From: Pseudomonadota bacterium
GTDB lineage: Bacteria; Pseudomonadota; Gammaproteobacteria; Burkholderiales; Burkholderiaceae
Assembly: GCA_029777935.1 (NCBI GenBank)
Contig: JAKORH010000219.1
Coordinates: 1-16,332 of the forward strand
DNA: 16,332 nucleotides
Direction of reading: 5' to 3'
Below, in pieces: positions 3,253 through 16,332 of this stretch. The notes beneath the pieces were generated by a model. It ran no database searches. It saw only the letters and a list, made by a program, of their open reading frames with translations, and was not told the origin of the DNA. Position numbers and translations under genes: made by a program. Every line of letters starts with the position of its first letter. Position 1 is the first letter of the stretch.

Positions 3253-5050
<1,798 letters not shown>

Positions 5051-6917: not shown

Positions 6918-6931
6918 TTGACATGGATCAT
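6918..6931. promoter_or_regulatory. Fnr/Dnr box shared by nirI and nirX
   Basis: TTGAC-ATGG-ATCAT matches 9 of 10 positions of TTGAY-N4-RTCAA. It sits almost midway between the divergent starts: 52 bases from the nirI ATG and 55 bases from the nirX ATG. With the centre at -41.5, predicted transcription starts are near 6883 for nirI and 6966 for nirX, leaving leaders of about 18 and 21 bases. The -10 regions in register are poor (CAGAGT for nirI, GATGCC for nirX), so the site is called on the box and its position. A bound regulator could serve both genes. Confidence 0.68.
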
Positions 6932-6986
6932 GCGTCGGCTTGCGACGAGAGGGGATGCCCGACAGGCACGGCAGAATGCGGCACGC

Positions 6987-7991
6987 ATGACCGTCCGACG
7001 CGCGCTCGCTTCATTGGCCCTCTCCGCGGTGCTGGCTGCGGTGCACTGCGCGCCGGCCGAAGCCGTGCAGGTCCGCGACGCGCGGCCGCTGATGGGTACG
7101 GTGGTCGAAATCATCGCCGAAGGGCCCGACGAAGCCGCGCTCGGCGCGGCGCTCGGCGCTGCCTACCGGGAAATGCAGCGGCTGACGGGCATGATGAACC
7201 ACTTCGATCCGGCGAGCGTCGTCAGCGCGATCAACGCCGCGGCCGGCACCCGCGCCGTTGCCGTTCCGCCGGAGCTGATGGAAGTGCTGGTGATGGCACA
7301 GCGGCTCTCGCGCCGCTCCGGCGGCGCCTTCGATGTCACCGTCGGCGCGCTCACGGGCTGGCGCTTCCGGCCCGGCGGGGAACGCCTGCCGTCGCCGGAC
7401 GAGGTCGCCGCACAGCGCGCGAAGGTGGACTGGCGCAAGCTCGAACTCGATCCGCGCGCGGGTACGGCGTTCCTGGCCGAACCCGGCATGCGGATCGATC
7501 TGGGCGGCATCGCGAAGCTCTACATCCTCGACGCCGGCCTGCGTGCGCTGAAATTGCACGGCGTGGCGCGCGCGATGGTCAACGGCGGCGGCGATGTCGA
7601 GGTCGGCGGGCACGCGAACGAACGCCCGTGGCGGATCGGAATCCGCGATCCGCGCGCCCCGGACCGTTTGCTCGGCGTGGCCGAGGTGGCGCGGGGTTTC
7701 GTCGCTTCCTCGGGAGACTACGAGCGCGGGTTCGTTCGCGACGGCAGGCGCTTTCACCACATCCTCGATCCGCGCACCGGTTCCCCGACGCAGGGACCGC
7801 GCGGCGTGACGGTGATTGGCGAGGATCTGGCCGCCGTCAACGGCCTGTCGCTGGCGATCATGGTGCTCGGCAAGGTAGCGGGCATCCGCCTCGTCGCCGG
7901 CACGCCCGGTGTCGACGCGCTGATCGTCGACGGCGACGGCAGCGTGTGGATGTCGAACGGCTTCCGTGCGCGGCTGAAGCCGGCGCAGTGA
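6987..7991 (+). CDS. nirX: NirX, ApbE-family FMN transferase
   Basis: A 334-residue ApbE-family protein with an export signal at 1-26. Family motifs are PLMGTVVEI (34-42), DLGGIAK (171-177), VNGGGDVEVGG (198-208) and HHILDPRTGSP (257-267). ApbE enzymes transfer FMN from FAD to Thr of an S/T-GAT motif in exported proteins; NirX and NosX do this for NirI and NosR. NirI, encoded divergently, carries that motif. One oddity: the region that in ApbE reads DAL(A/S)T and supplies metal ligands is here Asn285-Gly-Leu-Ser-Leu289, so Asp and Thr are replaced. The start at 6987 gives the signal peptide; an upstream ATG at 6930 would add an unconserved basic stretch overlapping the regulatory box. A Cys at 21 follows AVH, a poor lipobox. 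The gene ends 29 bases before the convergent receptor gene. Confidence 0.88.
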   Translation: MTVRRALASLALSAVLAAVHCAPAEAVQVRDARPLMGTVVEIIAEGPDEAALGAALGAAYREMQRLTGMMNHFDPASVVSAINAAAGTRAVAVPPELMEVLVMAQRLSRRSGGAFDVTVGALTGWRFRPGGERLPSPDEVAAQRAKVDWRKLELDPRAGTAFLAEPGMRIDLGGIAKLYILDAGLRALKLHGVARAMVNGGGDVEVGGHANERPWRIGIRDPRAPDRLLGVAEVARGFVASSGDYERGFVRDGRRFHHILDPRTGSPTQGPRGVTVIGEDLAAVNGLSLAIMVLGKVAGIRLVAGTPGVDALIVDGDGSVWMSNGFRARLKPAQ

Positions 7992-10293: not shown

Positions 10294-10437
10294 CCGCGCG
10301 CGCGGCGCGCGCGGGGCGTTCGGGTTACCTCCTTGGAGGAGGGTCGCGCGGCGCGGCCGGGGCGGATATGACCGGAATCAGGATTCGCCCGTGCGTGCGC
10401 ACCAGACTTCGCCGTTATTTTGCTTCAGATCGAAGCG

Positions 10438-11136
10438 ATGGCCACGACTCCGATCACTGCCGAGACCTTTCTCGCCGCGATGCCGCTGTTCCGCGAACTG
10501 GCGCCGGTCCAGCGCGAACGCATCGCCGAACGTACGCGCCAGCTGCGTGTCGCGCGCGGCGACACGCTGTTCCACCGCGGCGACCCGTGCCTGGGCATGC
10601 ACCTGATCGTGCACGGACAGGTCAAGCTGTCGTTCGTGTCGTCGACGGGCGTGGAGAAGGTGATCGAGTTCCTCGGCGCCGGACAGACCTTCGGCGAGGC
10701 GGTGATGTTCCTCGACATGCCGCACGTGGTCACTGCCACCGCGCTCGCCGATTCGCTGCTGCTGTTCATCCCGAAGGAAGCGGTGTTCGAGCGCATCGAG
10801 TCCGACCCGGGCTTCTCGCGCGGCATGCTCGCGGGGCTGGCACGCCGGCTGCACCAGCTTGTCGCCGACGTCGAGGCGTTCTCGACCCGCTCCGGCACGG
10901 AGCGCGTGATCGGCTTCCTGATGCGCGACTGCTCGATCGCGGACGAAGGCAGCGAAGCGCGGCCGACCGAGGTCGTGCTGCCGGTGGCCAAGGGTGTGAT
11001 CGCGTCGCGCCTGAATCTGACGCAGGAGCATTTCTCGCGCATCCTGCACGACCTGTCGGCGGCCGGGCTGATCGAGGTGCGTGGCCGCAACATCCGCGTG
11101 CCGGACCCGCGCCGGCTGCGCGATTACCGGCCCTGA
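10438..11136 (+). CDS. dnr: Dnr-type Crp/Fnr-family transcription regulator
   Basis: A 232-residue Crp/Fnr regulator: cyclic-nucleotide-binding-like beta roll (about 15-125, with GDTLFHRGDP and GQTFGEAVMF), dimerisation helix (about 126-155), and winged helix-turn-helix (about 180-222). The recognition helix has Glu197-x-x-Ser200-Arg201, the E-x-x-S-R pattern by which Fnr and Dnr read TTGAY half-sites. There is no N-terminal cysteine cluster; the only cysteines are 51 and 165. This excludes an Fnr-type [4Fe-4S] oxygen sensor and fits Dnr/NnrR, which respond to NO and activate nir and nor genes. The ATG at 10438 is preferred over an upstream TTG, though its ribosome site is weak. The gene converges on the DUF2249 gene with a 13-base tail overlap. 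Exact subgroup (Dnr, NnrR or a relative) is not settled. Confidence 0.85.
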   Translation: MATTPITAETFLAAMPLFRELAPVQRERIAERTRQLRVARGDTLFHRGDPCLGMHLIVHGQVKLSFVSSTGVEKVIEFLGAGQTFGEAVMFLDMPHVVTATALADSLLLFIPKEAVFERIESDPGFSRGMLAGLARRLHQLVADVEAFSTRSGTERVIGFLMRDCSIADEGSEARPTEVVLPVAKGVIASRLNLTQEHFSRILHDLSAAGLIEVRGRNIRVPDPRRLRDYRP

Positions 11137-11354
11137 AAGACCTCGGGCGCGCCGATCTCGATCTCGAAGTGCCCCTGGTCCGACTGCCGCGTGCGATGCG
11201 CGTAGCCGTTGTGCTCGAGCACGCGATACAGCGGATACGGCTCGCGTTCCAGAATCAGCAGGATGCGCTGATCGGGCTTCAGTTCGCACAGCGCTTCCAT
11301 CACTCGCTCGAAGGGCGCCGGCGGCGCAAGGCCACGCGCGTCGATCACGATCAT
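11124..11354 (-). CDS. DUF2249 family small protein
   Basis: A 76-residue soluble protein. It begins IVIDARGLAPPAPFERVMEAL, with the D-x-R-G-L-x-x-P-x-P signature and a following helix, and contains EREPYPLYRVLEHNGY, which matches the DUF2249 P-x-P-L-Y region. The fold is related to TusA/SirA, but the TusA catalytic Cys-Pro is absent (it has APPAP), so sulfur transfer is not expected. Function is unknown. DUF2249 proteins often accompany denitrification and hemerythrin genes. The ATG overlaps the stop of the CtaA-like gene by ATGA, which fixes the start and ties it to the operon as its last gene. The 3' end overlaps the end of the regulator gene on the other strand by 13 bases. Confidence 0.85.
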   Translation of the reverse strand: MIVIDARGLAPPAPFERVMEALCELKPDQRILLILEREPYPLYRVLEHNGYAHRTRQSDQGHFEIEIGAPEVFQGR

Positions 11355-12223
11355 CGGACACTCTCCCACGAAGCCTTGCCGGCCGCGGCCAGCGCCGCGA
11401 TCAGGATGCCGGCCAGCACCGCGTGCAGCACGGCCAACAACAGCGGACGCTCGAATACGTACAGCGCGAATCCCGCTGCGGCCGCGGCGCCGGCGGCGAT
11501 CGCGAGCCGGCGCGCCGCGCGCCGCGCGCCGCGCGCGGCCGCAACCAGCAGCGTGGCGACCAGCAACGCGGCGCCCGCGAGCGCGTGCGTCGCAACCAGC
11601 GGCTGACCCGCGGTCGGGGCGCCGAGCAGTTCGGCCGCGCTGCCGGCACGCGTGACGTCCCACAGCGTGGCCGTGCCCGGTGCCCAAAGGGTGTCGCCCG
11701 GCCATGAATTCGCCGCCGCCGCCACGCGCGCACTGATCAGCGCGCCGCCGGCCGCTTGCAGCGCCAACGCTGCCGCCAGCGCGGCCACCAGCGCCAGTCG
11801 CGGCGCGCCGGCGCCGCGCACCAGCAGCCACGCCGTCAGGCCGATCAGGGCGAGCCCGCCGAGCACGTTGGCGATCGTCACCGCCGGCAGCGGGGACGGC
11901 GTGTAGCGGCCGAGCCAGGCCAGGCCGACGGTGACAGCGAGCAGCAGCAGCGACGCCGCGCGCTCGCCGCGCGTGAAGCGGCGCCAGCCCGCCAGCGGGA
12001 TCGCCAGCGCAAGCAGACCGAACACCGTCGCGGCGATGCGGTGCAGCGCGCGCAGCATCGACGTGATGACGGAGCCGCGCTGCTCCTCGGCGGTCGCCGC
12101 CTGACCGTAGCAGGCGGGCCACGGCGCGCACGACAGCCCGTTGGCCGCCAGCCGCAACCCGCTGCTCGCCGCGAGCACGACGAATGCCAGCACGAGCGCG
12201 GCCATGAGCAGCGCGCGGATCAC
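11351..12223 (-). CDS. CtaA/COX15-like heme-modifying membrane protein
   Basis: A 290-residue membrane protein with about eight hydrophobic segments. It matches the heme A synthase family: GLRLAANGLSCAPWPACYG (22-40) with Cys32 and Cys38, His61 in LRALHRIAA, His213 in THALAG and His267 in LHAVLAG. The fourth family histidine, expected near PAVTIANVLGG (113-123), seems to be Asn119. CtaA converts heme O to heme A; with one heme ligand changed and a probable NO reductase next door, the substrate may differ or the role may be assembly. The start is taken as the GTG at 12223, which overlaps the oxidase-like gene's stop (GTGA); ATG at 12205 is the alternative. A 7-base tandem repeat lies in the coding sequence at 11511-11538. 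Confidence 0.78.
   Translation of the reverse strand: MIRALLMAALVLAFVVLAASSGLRLAANGLSCAPWPACYGQAATAEEQRGSVITSMLRALHRIAATVFGLLALAIPLAGWRRFTRGERAASLLLLAVTVGLAWLGRYTPSPLPAVTIANVLGGLALIGLTAWLLVRGAGAPRLALVAALAAALALQAAGGALISARVAAAANSWPGDTLWAPGTATLWDVTRAGSAAELLGAPTAGQPLVATHALAGAALLVATLLVAAARGARRAARRLAIAAGAAAAAGFALYVFERPLLLAVLHAVLAGILIAALAAAGKASWESVR
11511..11538. repeat. 7-base tandem repeat in the CtaA-like gene
   Basis: CGCGCCG occurs three times in a row (11511-11531), followed by the near copy CGCGCGG. On the coding strand it spells the Arg/Ala loop RGARRAARR (231-239) between two membrane helices. As the unit is not a multiple of three, gain or loss of one copy would shift the frame. Confidence 0.6.
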
Positions 12224-13638
12224 GCGCTGTCCTTGCGCGTGAGCGCACGCAGCACGACCAGCACGAACAGCAGCCCGCCGATCACCGCGATCAGTCCGCC
12301 CAACCCCATCAGCGCCATGCCGGCGACTTCGCCCGGCGTGCGCAGCACCTGCTCGGCGCCGGCGACCTTGCGCTGCACGCCGTAGCCGCCCGACCACACG
12401 AGGCCGATGATGTGCAGCAGTTGTCCGCCGCCGTAGATCCACGGCTGCAGCCGCGCCGCGCGCGAGGCCGGCGCGGCGAAGCCCAGCCGCGGCAGCAGTG
12501 CGTAGGCGAGTCCCATCAGCGCCAGCGTGATGCCGACGATCGAGCCGTGGTAGTGCGCCGGAATGCGCACGTCGGAGCCGCGGATCAGAAAGCCGATCAG
12601 CCCGCCGGCGGCGAACAGCAGCACCGAGGCGATCAGCGCCGCGCGCAGCGGCTTCGTAGGCGCGTCGAGCGCGCTGCCGCGCGAGTTGTACAGCGCCAGC
12701 GCGATCGCCGCGGTGACGGGCACGATCGCCAACCCGCCGCCGAACCGCATCTGCCACGTGAACAGCCGCTGGAACTCGACCGAGGTCACGTCCCACGCGA
12801 GGTAGATCACCGGCGTGGCGAACACCGACACGAGCCCGATCGCGAACAGCAGCAACACCACCCGCGGCGACAGCGGCACGCGCGCGCCGGCGAGCGACGC
12901 CAGCACCAGCCACGCCACCAGCATGATCAGGCTCCAGCAGAACTGCGCCACGTGTCCCGGGCCCCAGAACAGCATCTCGTAGTACGCCTTGGCAGGCAGG
13001 TCGCGCGGCACCGAGAACGCCGACCACGCGAGCGCGAGGACGGCGAGCGCGGCCGCGACCGCGGCGGCGTTCAGCCCGAAGCGCAGCGCGCTCTCGGGCG
13101 CCAGCCGCGTGCCGACCTTTTCGGGCACAGCGAGCGCGCGCAAGGCTGTCAGGCCGAAGCCGATGCCGAAGATCACGAGTCCCGCGATGAATACGTTGCC
13201 GTCGAGCACCGGTACGTAGTTGGCCATCACGGCAACCGCGGGCTCGACGAACGGCGCGATCGCGAGCGTGGCGGCGCCCAGCAGCGCAAAGCCCCAGCCG
13301 ACCCAGGCCGCGCCGAGCCAGCGCTCGGTGCCGGCGAGGCTCCACAGCATCCCGGCGCAGGCGGCGAACCAGACCAGCACCGACAGATCGACGTGCACCA
13401 CCAGCGCGACCCGGAAGAAGTCGATGCCCGGCAGCAGCGCGCCGATCGCGGGCGTGCGCGCCGCCACCAGCAGCACAGAGAACACGCCGGAGGCGAGCAG
13501 CGCGCCGACGGCGAGCAGCAGCCACGCGGTGGCGAGCCGGCGCCGCTCGCCCGCGTGCACGGTCAGGCCGTAGCCGTGCGTGGCTACCGCGCCGAGCGCG
13601 CGCCACGTCTGCGGTTCGGCCAGCGTCGCGGGCCTCAT
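12220..13638 (-). CDS. Divergent heme-copper oxidoreductase subunit I, probable NO reductase
   Basis: A 472-residue, 12-helix membrane protein of the heme-copper superfamily. Low-spin heme ligands are His82 in helix II (VVHVDLSV) and His364; His362 is the likely axial ligand of the high-spin heme (PAHYHG aligns with AHFHY of aa3 oxidases). Helix VI has GHVAQF where aa3 oxidases have GHPEVY: the metal-ligand His229 stays, but the cross-linking Tyr is Phe. In helix VII the CuB His-His pair aligns with Trp282-Asp283. Such changes are expected of NO reductases outside the cNOR/qNOR type, and an Asp ligand recalls the described gNOR group; this assignment is from memory and tentative. No subunit II with a CuA site is in view. 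The start ATG overlaps the preceding stop (ATGA) and the end overlaps the next start (GTGA). Confidence 0.8.
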   Translation of the reverse strand: MRPATLAEPQTWRALGAVATHGYGLTVHAGERRRLATAWLLLAVGALLASGVFSVLLVAARTPAIGALLPGIDFFRVALVVHVDLSVLVWFAACAGMLWSLAGTERWLGAAWVGWGFALLGAATLAIAPFVEPAVAVMANYVPVLDGNVFIAGLVIFGIGFGLTALRALAVPEKVGTRLAPESALRFGLNAAAVAAALAVLALAWSAFSVPRDLPAKAYYEMLFWGPGHVAQFCWSLIMLVAWLVLASLAGARVPLSPRVVLLLFAIGLVSVFATPVIYLAWDVTSVEFQRLFTWQMRFGGGLAIVPVTAAIALALYNSRGSALDAPTKPLRAALIASVLLFAAGGLIGFLIRGSDVRIPAHYHGSIVGITLALMGLAYALLPRLGFAAPASRAARLQPWIYGGGQLLHIIGLVWSGGYGVQRKVAGAEQVLRTPGEVAGMALMGLGGLIAVIGGLLFVLVVLRALTRKDSA

Positions 13639-14144
13639 CGGATAATCACGCCGCCGCGTTCCGGATTGAAGTCGATCAGCAGGATCTGCCCCGGCGCGAT
13701 CGCGACGCGTTCGTCCTTCTCGTACGTGTAACCGCTGGCGCGCGCGTCGTCGTTGACCTGCACGCGCAGCTCGTGCGATCCCGCAGGTACCGGCAGCCGG
13801 CGATAGCCGGAGGCCGCGCCGTCCTTCGACAGGCCCGCCGGCGGAAACGCGTTCTCGATCACCGCCACGCCGTCCAGCTCCACGCGCACGCGCACCGGCG
13901 AACGCTCGCGCGGGCAATCGGTCGGCGAGCGCAGGTGCGGCGGCAGCTTCGCAAGTTCTTCCGGCGTGCGCTGCCGGCATTCGAAGCGCGGCTTGCCCGG
14001 CGCCAGGAACGACAGCCGCAGCAGCCCTTCATCGGGCGCGAGCAGCGTGAACGGCGGATGCGTCGAGAAGTAGCCGACGAAAGCAGCGAATGCGCCATAC
14101 GCGATCACCTGCAACGCGTAGCGCAGCGGGGCGCGCCAGTTCAT
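13635..14144 (-). CDS. Membrane-anchored protein of unknown function in the NO-reductase-like operon
   Basis: I do not recognise this 169-residue protein. One N-terminal membrane helix (about 8-27) is followed by a predicted periplasmic domain of about 140 residues rich in beta strands (SPVRVRVELDGVAVIEN, GSHELRVQVNDDA, GQILLIDFN). Two cysteines (56 and 77) could pair. The topology is that of a small subunit II of a heme-copper enzyme, but no CuA ligand set (CxxxC with flanking His) and no heme motif is present. The start is firm: ATG with GGAG 7 bases upstream, overlapping the preceding stop as ATGA. The end overlaps the next gene the same way. Its place between the electron-transfer protein and the catalytic subunit suggests a structural subunit of the complex; this is inference. 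Confidence 0.75.
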   Translation of the reverse strand: MNWRAPLRYALQVIAYGAFAAFVGYFSTHPPFTLLAPDEGLLRLSFLAPGKPRFECRQRTPEELAKLPPHLRSPTDCPRERSPVRVRVELDGVAVIENAFPPAGLSKDGAASGYRRLPVPAGSHELRVQVNDDARASGYTYEKDERVAIAPGQILLIDFNPERGGVIIR

Positions 14145-15610
14145 GTTTGCGCTCCTGCGGCGTCGATCTGTTGCACGTGCGCGCCGCGCGCGCGCGGGTG
14201 CAGGTGCGGCTCGCGCGCGCCGGCGAGCCGGGCACGCGTGAAGCGGCTGCCGAAACGGAACTCGCACGCGTCGTCGCCGCAGCCGGCCAACCGCACGGCG
14301 CGCGCCCCGCGCGCGAGCGCGTAGTCGGCGAACGACGGCGGCACGTAGCCGAGGCACGGCACCGCGAGCGTGACCGCAGCGGGATCGCGCGGCGTCGCGG
14401 CGCGCTCGCAATCGAACACCACCGCCGCGCCGGGCCGGACCGCCAGCGCCGCGTCGAGGCGGCGACGCAGATCATCGATCGGCTGCGCCGGCAGTTCGAT
14501 GCCGCTTGCGAGCCGACTCACGCGGCGGAACGGATCGGAGCGCGGGCACGCGCCGACGCAGATGCCGCACGCGGCGCACAGGTCGGAATCGACGCGCGCG
14601 ATCGAGCGGAAGCGCGCGGTGTCGGTGCGCGGCGCCATCACGACCGCCTCGTATGGGCAGTCTTCGAAGCAGCGCGCGCAGCCCGTGCATTCGCGGGCGT
14701 CGATCATGGCGGCGGCGGTGCGCGGTTCGCGCCGCGTCCACGGCAGCAGTCCGACCAGCAGCACGAGCGCGGCGACCGCACCCCAGGCCAGCGCGGGCGA
14801 AGCACCCTGCGCGAGCACCAGTGGCGCGAGATAGAACCAGTCGATCGGCAGGTCGACCGGTGCGCGGGCGAAATCGGCCGGCACTGTCGACAGCGCGGGA
14901 GCGGCGAGCGCAAGCAGCGCGATCGATGCCGCGAATCCGGCGCCGAGCGCGCGCGCCGGATTCACACGCGGGCGCGCCAGCCGCAGCAGGTGCGCCCACA
15001 GCCCGAGCAGGATCAGCAGGCCGACGCCGATGTGCAGGAAGATCAGCAGCGAGAACAGCCGGTCGGACACCGCCTCGGCGGTGACGAAATTGCGGATCAG
15101 TCCGTCGCCGAAGCCGGGCAGCCAGCCGGCCCACTCGCCGATCGCGGTGGCGACGAACTGTGCGCGCGTATCGGCCGGCAGCCAGTAGCCGACGATGCCG
15201 TCGGCCGCGAGCAGCAACAGGATCGGCACACCGGTCAGCCACGAGAACCAGCGGAAGCCGTGGTAGCGGCCGTGCGCCCACTCGCGCGCCAGGTGCAGAA
15301 CCGCGAGCAGCGCGAACGCATCGGCGCTGTAGCGGTGCAGTCCGCGCACCAGTCCGCCCAGCCAGGGCTGGCGCGCGAGCGCGTCGATCGAGCCGTGCGC
15401 GCCGAGCGCCGAGCTGTCGAACACGATGTACAGATAGGCGCCGCTGCCGAACGCGATCCACAGCGAAAGAAAGGCGAGCGCGCCGAGCTGGCGCAGCGGA
15501 TTGGCGCGCCCGAACGGCAAATCGAGCGCGCGCTCGACGCGCTCGATCGCGCTCGACGCGCGCGGCGACGCCGGCATCACCGTGGGTGCGAAGGCGAGTT
15601 GAGCGTGCAT
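14141..15610 (-). CDS. Fused cytochrome b / 2x[4Fe-4S] ferredoxin / MvhD-like protein
   Basis: A 489-residue three-part protein. Residues about 35-240 form a cytochrome b N-terminal-type membrane domain with His92/His106 and His193/His207, each pair 14 apart, able to bind two b hemes across the membrane. After more hydrophobic helices (about 255-290) come two [4Fe-4S] sites, Cys308/311/314/318 and Cys345/348/351/355. The C-terminal part (about 395-470) resembles MvhD/FrhD, the iron-sulfur subunit of methyl-viologen-reducing hydrogenase, with Cys401, 419, 444 and 449. No hydrogenase gene is near. It most likely takes electrons from quinol or a cytoplasmic donor and feeds the neighbouring heme-copper enzyme. 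Start at 15610 is the best guess; 15661 would add a poorly conserved stretch. The stop overlaps the next start (ATGA). Confidence 0.82.
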   Translation of the reverse strand: MHAQLAFAPTVMPASPRASSAIERVERALDLPFGRANPLRQLGALAFLSLWIAFGSGAYLYIVFDSSALGAHGSIDALARQPWLGGLVRGLHRYSADAFALLAVLHLAREWAHGRYHGFRWFSWLTGVPILLLLAADGIVGYWLPADTRAQFVATAIGEWAGWLPGFGDGLIRNFVTAEAVSDRLFSLLIFLHIGVGLLILLGLWAHLLRLARPRVNPARALGAGFAASIALLALAAPALSTVPADFARAPVDLPIDWFYLAPLVLAQGASPALAWGAVAALVLLVGLLPWTRREPRTAAAMIDARECTGCARCFEDCPYEAVVMAPRTDTARFRSIARVDSDLCAACGICVGACPRSDPFRRVSRLASGIELPAQPIDDLRRRLDAALAVRPGAAVVFDCERAATPRDPAAVTLAVPCLGYVPPSFADYALARGARAVRLAGCGDDACEFRFGSRFTRARLAGAREPHLHPRARGAHVQQIDAAGAQT

Positions 15611-15670
15611 GAACGTATGAACCCGGCCGCGATCATGCGTTGCACGATCGGTGGCGCGCATTGACCGTCA

Positions 15671-16332
15671 TCAAGAGGCGCGGCGGGTCCGGAAGTGGCG
15701 GCGCGTCTCGCGGCCGATGAACCATGCCAACACGCCGAGTGTGGTGATGCCGGCGAAGATCTCGACGAACAGCGAGTAGTCGAACTTGTACTTGCCGCTG
15801 GCAGGGTCATACACGGTGCAATAGAGCTTCACCCGCTGCCACACGCTGTCGAGCGTGAGCGCGTGCGCGGCTTCGCCGGCGAGCGCCGCCTTCAGCGGGC
15901 CGATGAACATCGGCAGCTCGAACGCGTCGCCGTACACCTGTGCGTGGATGCGGCCGTTGGCGTCGACGATCGTGGCCTGGATCAAATGGTCGAAACCGGA
16001 CGCGGTCGGCGTGACCGACATGCCGAAGCGCGCCAGCAGCGGCTCGACGTCGGTCGTGCGTGGCGCGAGGAACTCCCAGTTGGGCAGCTCCGCGCCCTGC
16101 TGGCGCGCGAAGGCGGCCAGCGCTTCCGGCGTGTCGAACGGCTGGTTGAAACCGATCGACACGACGTGGAAGCTGTCGGCGCCGAGCGCATCGCGCGCCG
16201 CCTGCGTGGCACGCTTCAGGAACTGCGTGGTCGCCGGGCAGACCTGGAAGCAGCCGGTGTAGATGAAGCTCACGACCAGCGGCTTGCCGCGGTAGTCGGA
16301 CAGTCGGACCGCGCGGCCGCCGCGGTCGGTGA
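15671..16332 (-). CDS. SCO/SenC-family copper chaperone, 5' end missing
   Basis: The frame stays open to the right edge, so the N-terminus lies beyond the window; the GTG at 16273 is internal to the SCO domain (RLSDYRGKPLVVSFIYTGCF). The thioredoxin-like domain has the copper-binding CFQVCP motif and the conserved distal His in GFDHLIQATIVD, so copper binding looks intact. SCO proteins deliver copper to, or reduce, CuA or CuB sites of heme-copper enzymes in the periplasm. Near its C-terminus is a membrane helix (YSLFVEIFAGITTLGVLAWFIG) followed by a basic tail, whereas most SCO proteins are anchored at the N-terminus. It precedes the fused cytochrome b gene by 60 bases, with no visible terminator between, and probably belongs to the same operon. 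Confidence 0.88.
   Translation of the reverse strand, partial: TDRGGRAVRLSDYRGKPLVVSFIYTGCFQVCPATTQFLKRATQAARDALGADSFHVVSIGFNQPFDTPEALAAFARQQGAELPNWEFLAPRTTDVEPLLARFGMSVTPTASGFDHLIQATIVDANGRIHAQVYGDAFELPMFIGPLKAALAGEAAHALTLDSVWQRVKLYCTVYDPASGKYKFDYSLFVEIFAGITTLGVLAWFIGRETRRHFRTRRAS

What the first reader, a model, noticed from the sequence alone, without database searches (positions are those of the whole stretch)
12220..13638. Heme-copper subunit I with Trp-Asp in place of the CuB His-His pair
Aligning by eye with aa3 oxidase subunit I, the heme histidines and helix VI His229 are kept, but Trp282-Asp283 sits where the two CuB histidines should be, and the helix VI Tyr is Phe. The number of residues from this pair to the helix VIII Ile-Pro matches the oxidase almost exactly, so the alignment is not arbitrary. 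The enzyme probably reduces NO at an atypical metal centre. The known gNOR group is described as having altered CuB ligands, so it may belong there or form a new branch.
Basis: partly seen in the sequence, partly recalled or inferred. Interest (0 to 1): 0.75.

Follow-up and report, generated by a model that had tools for sequence, protein, structure and literature searches.

The report
Copper-site-altered relative of NO reductase
A membrane protein built like the enzymes that reduce oxygen or nitric oxide has lost two of the three histidines that normally hold the second metal of its active site, and in the genomes sampled it mostly occurs together with another, intact nitric oxide reductase of the eNOR type, so it is probably a partner or variant nitric-oxide-handling enzyme of denitrifying bacteria.

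Summary
The gene is real, on the MINUS strand (13638-12220, 472 aa), under purifying selection. It keeps the low-spin heme ligands (H82, H364), the high-spin heme ligand (H362) and one CuB ligand (H229), and has no His-His pair at the CuB loop (0 of 339 aligned family members). Trp282-Asp283 is not the signature: position 282 is among the most variable sites (Y/W/H/F), D283 is kept in 274 of 339. The family hallmarks are E221, W225, H229 and Q232; no loop metal ligand is universal. In a tree without gNOR, nNOR and bNOR references the family is one clade (100/100), sister to eNOR-type NO reductases (99/98), within the B family. It co-occurs with eNOR (19 of 19 eNOR genomes in 250 of one order; the same 7 of 77 Nitrospinota; 18 of 23 eNOR genomes in 274 of a gammaproteobacterial class) and with cytochrome d1; 12 genomes of that class have it without eNOR. 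In relatives the eNOR genes lie upstream in the same cluster; the window ends before them. A member labelled Candidatus Methylomirabilis, a genus published to carry gNOR, makes it plausible that the clade is or includes gNOR; no reference gNOR was testable. Most likely it handles NO at a heme-dominated site; a non-catalytic eNOR-partner role stays open.

The parts
12220..13638 (-). divergent heme-copper subunit I, 472 aa (start ATG at 13638-13636, stop at 12222-12220)
   Evidence: dN/dS about 0.31-0.35 against the three nearest loci L001-L003
12790..12795 (-). codons of Trp282-Asp283 in the loop after helix VII, near where the CuB His pair lies in other HCOs; variable in the family
12952..12954 (-). 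codon of His229, the only CuB-type ligand kept (338 of 339, one gap)
12943..12945 (-). codon of Gln232 (H229+3), 338 of 339 with one gap; Gln also in 11 of 11 eNOR-type rows
12976..12978 (-). codon of Glu221 (H229-8), E in 335 and D in 3 of 339; Arg or Lys in the 11 eNOR-type rows and Arg in the one ba3 row
13638..14141 (-). 168-aa protein, one TM helix plus beta-sandwich, two invariant Cys, no cupredoxin copper ligands; its stop overlaps the subunit I start (ATGA)
14141..15661 (-). cytochrome b domain fused to a two-cluster ferredoxin domain and an FlpD-like end; quinol or ferredoxin-side electron transfer module
   Evidence: neighbour in 25 of 36 loci
15671..16330 (-). SCO1/SenC copper chaperone family (5' end beyond the window)
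   Evidence: neighbour in 24 of 36 loci
11351..12223 (-). COX15/CtaA family (heme A synthase-like), overlaps the stop of subunit I (GTGA)
11124..11354 (-). DUF2249/TusA-like 76-aa protein
10420..11136 (+). Crp/Fnr family regulator, convergent with the cluster
3253..4992 (-). cytochrome cd1 nitrite reductase (NirS), source of NO, elsewhere in the window
   Evidence: Cytochrom_D1 513.8 bits

Best explanation
The gene encodes a member of a large clade of B-family heme-copper proteins that is sister to the eNOR-type NO reductases (shown on this sampling). It keeps both heme sites and one CuB ligand, H229, but has lost the His pair, the active-site Tyr (F233) and the K-channel Tyr of helix VI (shown by alignment). 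I infer that it works on NO in denitrification beside the eNOR-type enzyme encoded in the same cluster in relatives: electrons reach the low-spin heme (H82/H364), pass to the high-spin heme (H362), and NO is bound and probably turned over to N2O there, with H229 and the invariant Q232 as distal residues and with no, or only a weakly held, metal at the CuB place. The 168-aa protein and the cytochrome b/FeS protein serve the same module; the electron donor (quinol or cytochrome) is unknown. The clade is probably the published gNOR group or its close kin (inference).
For: Ligands and family-wide invariants: H82 334, E221 335 E + 3 D, W225 338, H229 338, Q232 338, H362 339, H364 339 of 339 rows, remaining cells gaps; variable loop 282/283/288/289. 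HCO fold. Clade support 100/100 and sister to eNOR-type rows 99/98; shared Gln at H+3 in 18 of 18 and 11 of 11 rows. Loss of Tyr at H+4 and H+15, 0 of 18 rows. eNOR-type HCO in 16 of 18 genomes searched, motif GHS[SA]QQ with HH, on the same contig 3.1-8.4 kb apart in 14 of 18. Co-occurrence with eNOR: 19 of 20 family genomes in 250, 7 of 7 in 77, 18 of 30 in 274; with cytochrome d1: 18 of 20 and 23 of 30 against 66 of 250 and 54 of 274. Purifying selection.
Against: No activity, metal or spectrum is known. Two thirds of the metal ligands are gone, which in most HCOs would abolish turnover. The eNOR-type enzyme can already reduce NO. 12 of 30 family genomes in the 274 lack a detected eNOR, 5 eNOR genomes there lack the family, and 7 of those 30 lack cytochrome d1. 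In 5 of those 12 (and in G015) the gene lies near an A-type oxidase operon instead, which points away from an eNOR-only role. The genomes are MAGs of unknown completeness. D283 is conserved enough (93 of 95 rows of the Methylomirabilis-side search) that a metal held by H229 and D283 cannot be excluded.
Confidence: 0.45

Rival explanations
1. Non-catalytic or auxiliary partner of the eNOR-type enzyme: a degenerate paralogue that forms a heterodimer with it or feeds electrons, NO or heme to it, without turnover of its own.
For: Sister relation to eNOR; near-obligate co-occurrence in two of three samples, unlinked on separate contigs in all 7 Nitrospinota genomes; no second copper subunit of its own in the window; cluster holds heme O/A and copper maturation genes.
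Against: 12 of 30 family genomes of the 274 set have no detected eNOR, the Defluviimonas plasmid has an eNOR module with the cytochrome b and 172-aa genes but no detectable family member on that record (its chromosome was not searchable), and all heme ligands stay invariant, which a structural subunit would not need.
Confidence: 0.27
2. gNOR-type catalytic NO reductase with a rebuilt metal site: the second metal (Cu or Fe) is held by H229, D283 and a third loop residue (H282 where present, or E288/H289).
For: D283 in 274 of 339 and H282-D283 in 64 of 339; a passage in PMC3475470 says that in certain NOR types one CuB/FeB His is substituted by Asp; family member labelled Candidatus Methylomirabilis sp. 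(P0254, N282-D283), a genus with a published gNOR (PMC6094997 passages).
Against: No loop ligand is universal: 283 is P, E, N, T or other in 65 of 339, 282 changes 63 times on the tree, E288 is Ala in 102 of 339; the window itself has W282 and F289, so only H229, D283 and E288 remain.
Confidence: 0.2
3. NO or O2 sensing or scavenging heme protein without turnover, protecting neighbouring oxidases or NO reductases.
For: Stand-alone gene in several loci (for example L150, L156, L159) and near A-type oxidase operons in G409, G555, G557, G573, G600 and G015; distal His and Gln would suit gas binding (inference).
Against: An invariant low-spin heme site implies electron transfer, which a scavenger does not need; no signalling domain.
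Confidence: 0.06
4. Pseudogene, frameshift or assembly artefact.
For: Loss of metal ligands.
Against: Open frame, dN/dS 0.31-0.35 against three loci, hundreds of homologues with the same losses.
Confidence: 0.02

Closest known systems
eNOR-type NO reductases (Gln at the Tyr position, B family; Thermus, Thermomicrobium and betaproteobacterial rows here)
   Same: Sister clade (99/98); Gln at H+3, Trp at H-4 and H+14; same gene cluster in relatives.
   Different: eNOR keeps His-His (17 of 17 ORFs), Gln at H+4, Tyr at H+15 and Arg/Lys at H-8; this protein has none of these.
gNOR (proposed NO reductase group; Sulfurimonas, Sulfurovum, Persephonella, Methylomirabilis according to PMC8756737 and PMC6094997, passages seen)
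   Same: Altered CuB ligands with an Asp in the loop; member labelled Candidatus Methylomirabilis; no K-channel Tyr, in line with 0 proton channels in Table A4 of PMC8756737.
   Different: Both loop His are missing here, one according to PMC3475470; no cupredoxin subunit found next to it; no reference sequence was compared.
Thermus thermophilus ba3 oxidase (B-family oxygen reductase)
   Same: Best solved relative by profile (65.8 bits) and by Foldseek.
   Different: ba3 has His-His, the cross-linked Tyr and a K channel (established knowledge); 19-20% identity in Foldseek.
cNOR and qNOR (C-family NO reductases)
   Different: They hold three His and Glu at the metal site (motifs seen) and fall in another part of the tree.
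NO dismutase (NOD) of Methylomirabilis (recalled: qNOR-like with altered FeB ligands)
   Same: An HCO-fold protein with an altered second-metal site in NO chemistry.
   Different: qNOR-derived, not B family; not compared by sequence here.

Membership tests
heme-copper oxidoreductase superfamily | fold and Pfam COX1 over its cut-off | tested here: met
heme-copper oxidoreductase superfamily | two low-spin heme His and one high-spin heme His | tested here: met
   H82, H364, H362
heme-copper oxidoreductase superfamily | His sextet, i.e. three CuB/FeB His (called a signature in PMC3475470, passage) | tested here: not met
   only H229; 0 of 339 rows with HH at 274-286
eNOR | Gln at the Tyr position (PMC8756737 passages) | tested here: not met
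   F233 at H+4; Gln is at H+3
eNOR | inside the eNOR clade | tested here: not met
   sister clade, both clades 100/99 or better; bNOR, gNOR, nNOR references missing
gNOR | one CuB/FeB His replaced by Asp (PMC3475470, passage) | tested here: inconclusive
   D283 present, but the second His is missing too (W282); 64 of 339 relatives have His-Asp; register uncertain
gNOR | active-site residue D (Table A4 of PMC8756737) | tested here: inconclusive
   the table does not say at which position; Tyr position here is F233
gNOR | two-subunit enzyme with a cupredoxin subunit II (PMC8756737, passage) | tested here: inconclusive
   the adjoining 168-aa protein has no cupredoxin ligands and no confident fold match; a CuA-type subunit II lies upstream beside eNOR in L001
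gNOR | sequence kinship to a reference gNOR (Sulfurimonas, Persephonella, Damo_1118-1119) | not tested
   no reference sequence was reachable; only P0254, labelled Candidatus Methylomirabilis sp.
nNOR, bNOR | kinship to the reference sequences of Murali et al. 2024 | not tested
   paper not held
B-family oxygen reductase | His-His, Tyr at H+4, K-channel Tyr at H+15 | tested here: not met
   absent in 18 of 18 rows for the two Tyr positions; no HH
cNOR/qNOR | three His plus Glu at the metal site, C-family clade | tested here: not met

The most novel reading that the evidence does not exclude
NO reduction in these bacteria is done by a two-HCO system: an intact eNOR-type subunit and an obligate, CuB-less sister paralogue that divide the work (one binding or pre-reducing NO at a heme-only site, the other forming the N-N bond), possibly as a heterodimer fed by the cytochrome b/ferredoxin protein of the cluster. 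A heme-only HCO of this kind would be outside all described HCO mechanisms.
Probability: 0.18. Interest if true: 0.8.

Novelty: new variant of a known kind. Interest (0 to 1): 0.52.

Why it matters
Three His at CuB/FeB are taken as the signature of heme-copper enzymes. A large, selected clade that keeps both hemes but has given up two of them, and that sits next to and co-occurs with eNOR in denitrifiers, makes it testable whether N-N bond formation or NO handling in this fold needs the second metal at all. It also means that genome surveys that count these genes as 'cbb3-type cytochrome c oxidase subunit I' (the label of most named homologues) may call a probable NO-related protein an oxygen reductase.

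Tried and rejected

Led nowhere: the window's own genome is not held; the window protein has no match among plasmids up to E 0.001; the paper that defines eNOR, sNOR, gNOR and nNOR is not held, so what I know of its families is recalled or comes from passages in other papers; 7 of 10 paper searches gave no sequence or residue description of gNOR or nNOR beyond the passages cited. Model coordinates are not given to the Python box, so distances at the metal site could not be measured. No AU test of the eNOR-sister relation was run; the H2 stem is long (1.32), ba3 is represented by one long row, and 8 family rows were flagged for letter make-up.

Limits of the counts: 339 rows are the window, 36 loci and the capped best-120 lists of three searches, so they are related and chosen by similarity, and some are fragments (one to five gaps at the positions cited); a locus and a protein of the same gene can both be in. 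Orders and classes are named after the record titles of L003, L035 and L022; in GTDB the class of G012 can include Burkholderiales; none of the 274 genomes was among the 250. Thresholds differ: family E <= 1e-10 or 1e-30, eNOR E <= 1e-60, cytochrome d1 E <= 1e-60, which also catches NirN/NirF-like proteins. G163 has only a 39% relative. Fisher values ignore kinship of the genomes.

Full report
What is there. The gene is on the minus strand, 13638 to 12220, 472 aa. Its start overlaps the stop of a 168-aa gene (ATGA) and its stop overlaps the start of a COX15/CtaA-like gene (GTGA). The cluster on the minus strand reads SCO - cytochrome b/ferredoxin/FlpD - 168 aa - subunit I - COX15 - DUF2249, followed by a convergent Crp/Fnr regulator; a TonB receptor, ApbE, NosR-like, NirS, cytochrome c and a second short cytochrome d1-like gene fill the rest of the window. 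dN/dS is 0.31, 0.35 and 0.35 against L001, L002 and L003.

Ligands. Pfam COX1 matches over its cut-off, a profile of 48 members matches Thermus ba3 oxidase best (65.8 bits; 19 distinct PDB sequences up to E 0.01, all ba3 or the Aquifex enzyme 7deg), and AlphaFold2 gives a confident full-length HCO fold. H82, H229, H362 and H364 are invariant apart from gaps. There is no His-His pair in the loop: 0 of 339 rows for 274-286. The loop runs over residues 282-286 between helices 274-281 and 287-318 of the model.

But Trp-Asp is not the signature. Among 339 rows the 282-283 pairs are YD 90, HD 64, WD 54, FD 50, WP 14, YE 8 and others. Position 282 ranks 322nd of 446 in conservation; D283, E288 and F/H/Y289 vary too. 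What is kept is a face of helix VI: E221, W225, H229, Q232. Compared with 11 eNOR-type rows and one ba3 row, the family shares Gln at H+3 with eNOR only, has Phe (17 of 18) instead of Gln or Tyr at H+4, has lost Tyr at H+15 and has reversed the charge at H-8 from Arg/Lys to Glu/Asp. The exact register of 282-283 against the pair cannot be fixed by sequence, and no coordinates were available.

Kinship. In a 52-row IQ-TREE tree the family is one clade (100/100) and sister to the eNOR-type clade (99/98), apart from ba3, aa3, cbb3, cNOR, qNOR and two further groups. bNOR, gNOR and nNOR references were not available. [quoted passage not shown] A third protein search reached a member labelled Candidatus Methylomirabilis sp. 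(P0254); PMC6094997 (passages) reports one qNOR, one sNOR and one gNOR, two NOD and one oxidase in two Methylomirabilis species, so by elimination P0254 may be their gNOR. That is a lead, not a test.

Company. In L001, whose subunit I is 85% identical, a CuA-type subunit II, an HCO with GHSSQQ and His-His, and a heme O synthase precede the SCO gene. Such an eNOR-type HCO is found in 16 of 18 genomes searched, in 14 of 18 on the same contig, 3.1-8.4 kb from the family gene, 13 of these 14 on the same strand. Gln at the Tyr position is the eNOR mark given in PMC8756737 (passages), and the rows include Thermus and Thermomicrobium plasmid genes. It belongs to the B family (164.6 bits to ba3 against 39.9 to the best A-type). 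Co-occurrence: in 250 genomes of the order of L003, family 20, eNOR 19, both 19; in 77 of the phylum of L035, 7, 7 and 7, on different contigs in all seven; in 274 of the class of L022, 30, 23 and 18 (Fisher p 1e-27, 4e-10, 3e-16 without correction for kinship). Cytochrome d1 genes: 18 of 20 and 23 of 30 family genomes against 66 of 250 and 54 of 274 in all. Against an eNOR-only role: 12 family genomes of the 274 without eNOR, 5 eNOR genomes without the family; in 5 of those 12, and in G015, the gene lies near an A-type oxidase gene; several copies stand alone. On a Defluviimonas plasmid the eNOR module has the cytochrome b and 172-aa genes but no family member, so these two neighbours belong to the eNOR module at least as much as to this gene.

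Mechanism. Shown: fold, heme ligands, loss of two CuB ligands and of both Tyr, family invariants, kinship on this sampling, association with eNOR and cytochrome d1. Inferred: electron entry to the low-spin heme, NO as substrate, a heme-dominated site with H229 and Q232 as distal residues, and the donor. I hold NO handling with or without turnover as most likely, with catalysis in this subunit somewhat more likely than a purely auxiliary role because all heme ligands are invariant and the gene can occur without eNOR.

Verdict. Not an artefact and not an ordinary oxidase. It is a divergent member of a broad, little-described HCO clade next to eNOR that is probably gNOR or its kin; the extreme reading, a two-HCO NO reductase with a CuB-less partner, is open.

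Noticed in passing
L001:3870-6119 (relative; upstream of what corresponds to the window's cut end): eNOR-type HCO with CuA-type subunit II precedes the window's cluster in relatives; the window contig ends before it.
   Followed up: yes
L089:431+ and L090:492+ (G005, G013): Another degenerate HCO group: Tyr in place of the high-spin heme His (PGYFHF) and no His-His.
   Followed up: no
L082:2096+ (G018:C98): 482-aa HCO-like protein directly after a second eNOR-type gene; high-spin heme His replaced by Tyr (LGYIHA) but His-His kept.
   Followed up: no
L097:478-2400 (G005:C86): Paralogue of the window protein with a C-terminal extension that weakly matches TPR models, below their cut-offs.
   Followed up: partly
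L107:7361-13900 (Defluviimonas plasmid NZ_CP156080.1): eNOR module with heme O synthase, SCO, cytochrome b and a 172-aa gene, plus a hemerythrin gene, without the divergent subunit.
   Followed up: partly
window:2200-2949 (-): Second, short cytochrome d1-like protein (249 aa, 42.4 bits) next to the cytochrome c and NirS genes.
   Followed up: no
window:5051-7114 (-) and 6918-7991 (+): NosR-like protein (669 bits, below the NCBIfam cut-off of 1000) and ApbE side by side; no NosZ was recognised in the ORF list, but no search for it was made.
   Followed up: no
window:1012-1662 (-): Hemerythrin HHE domain protein (58.8 bits); another hemerythrin gene follows the eNOR module on the Defluviimonas plasmid.
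   Followed up: no
L160:980-3079 (-) (G338): Nitrospinota fusion of the cytochrome b/ferredoxin/FlpD protein with a domain like the 168-aa protein, right beside the divergent subunit I.
   Followed up: partly
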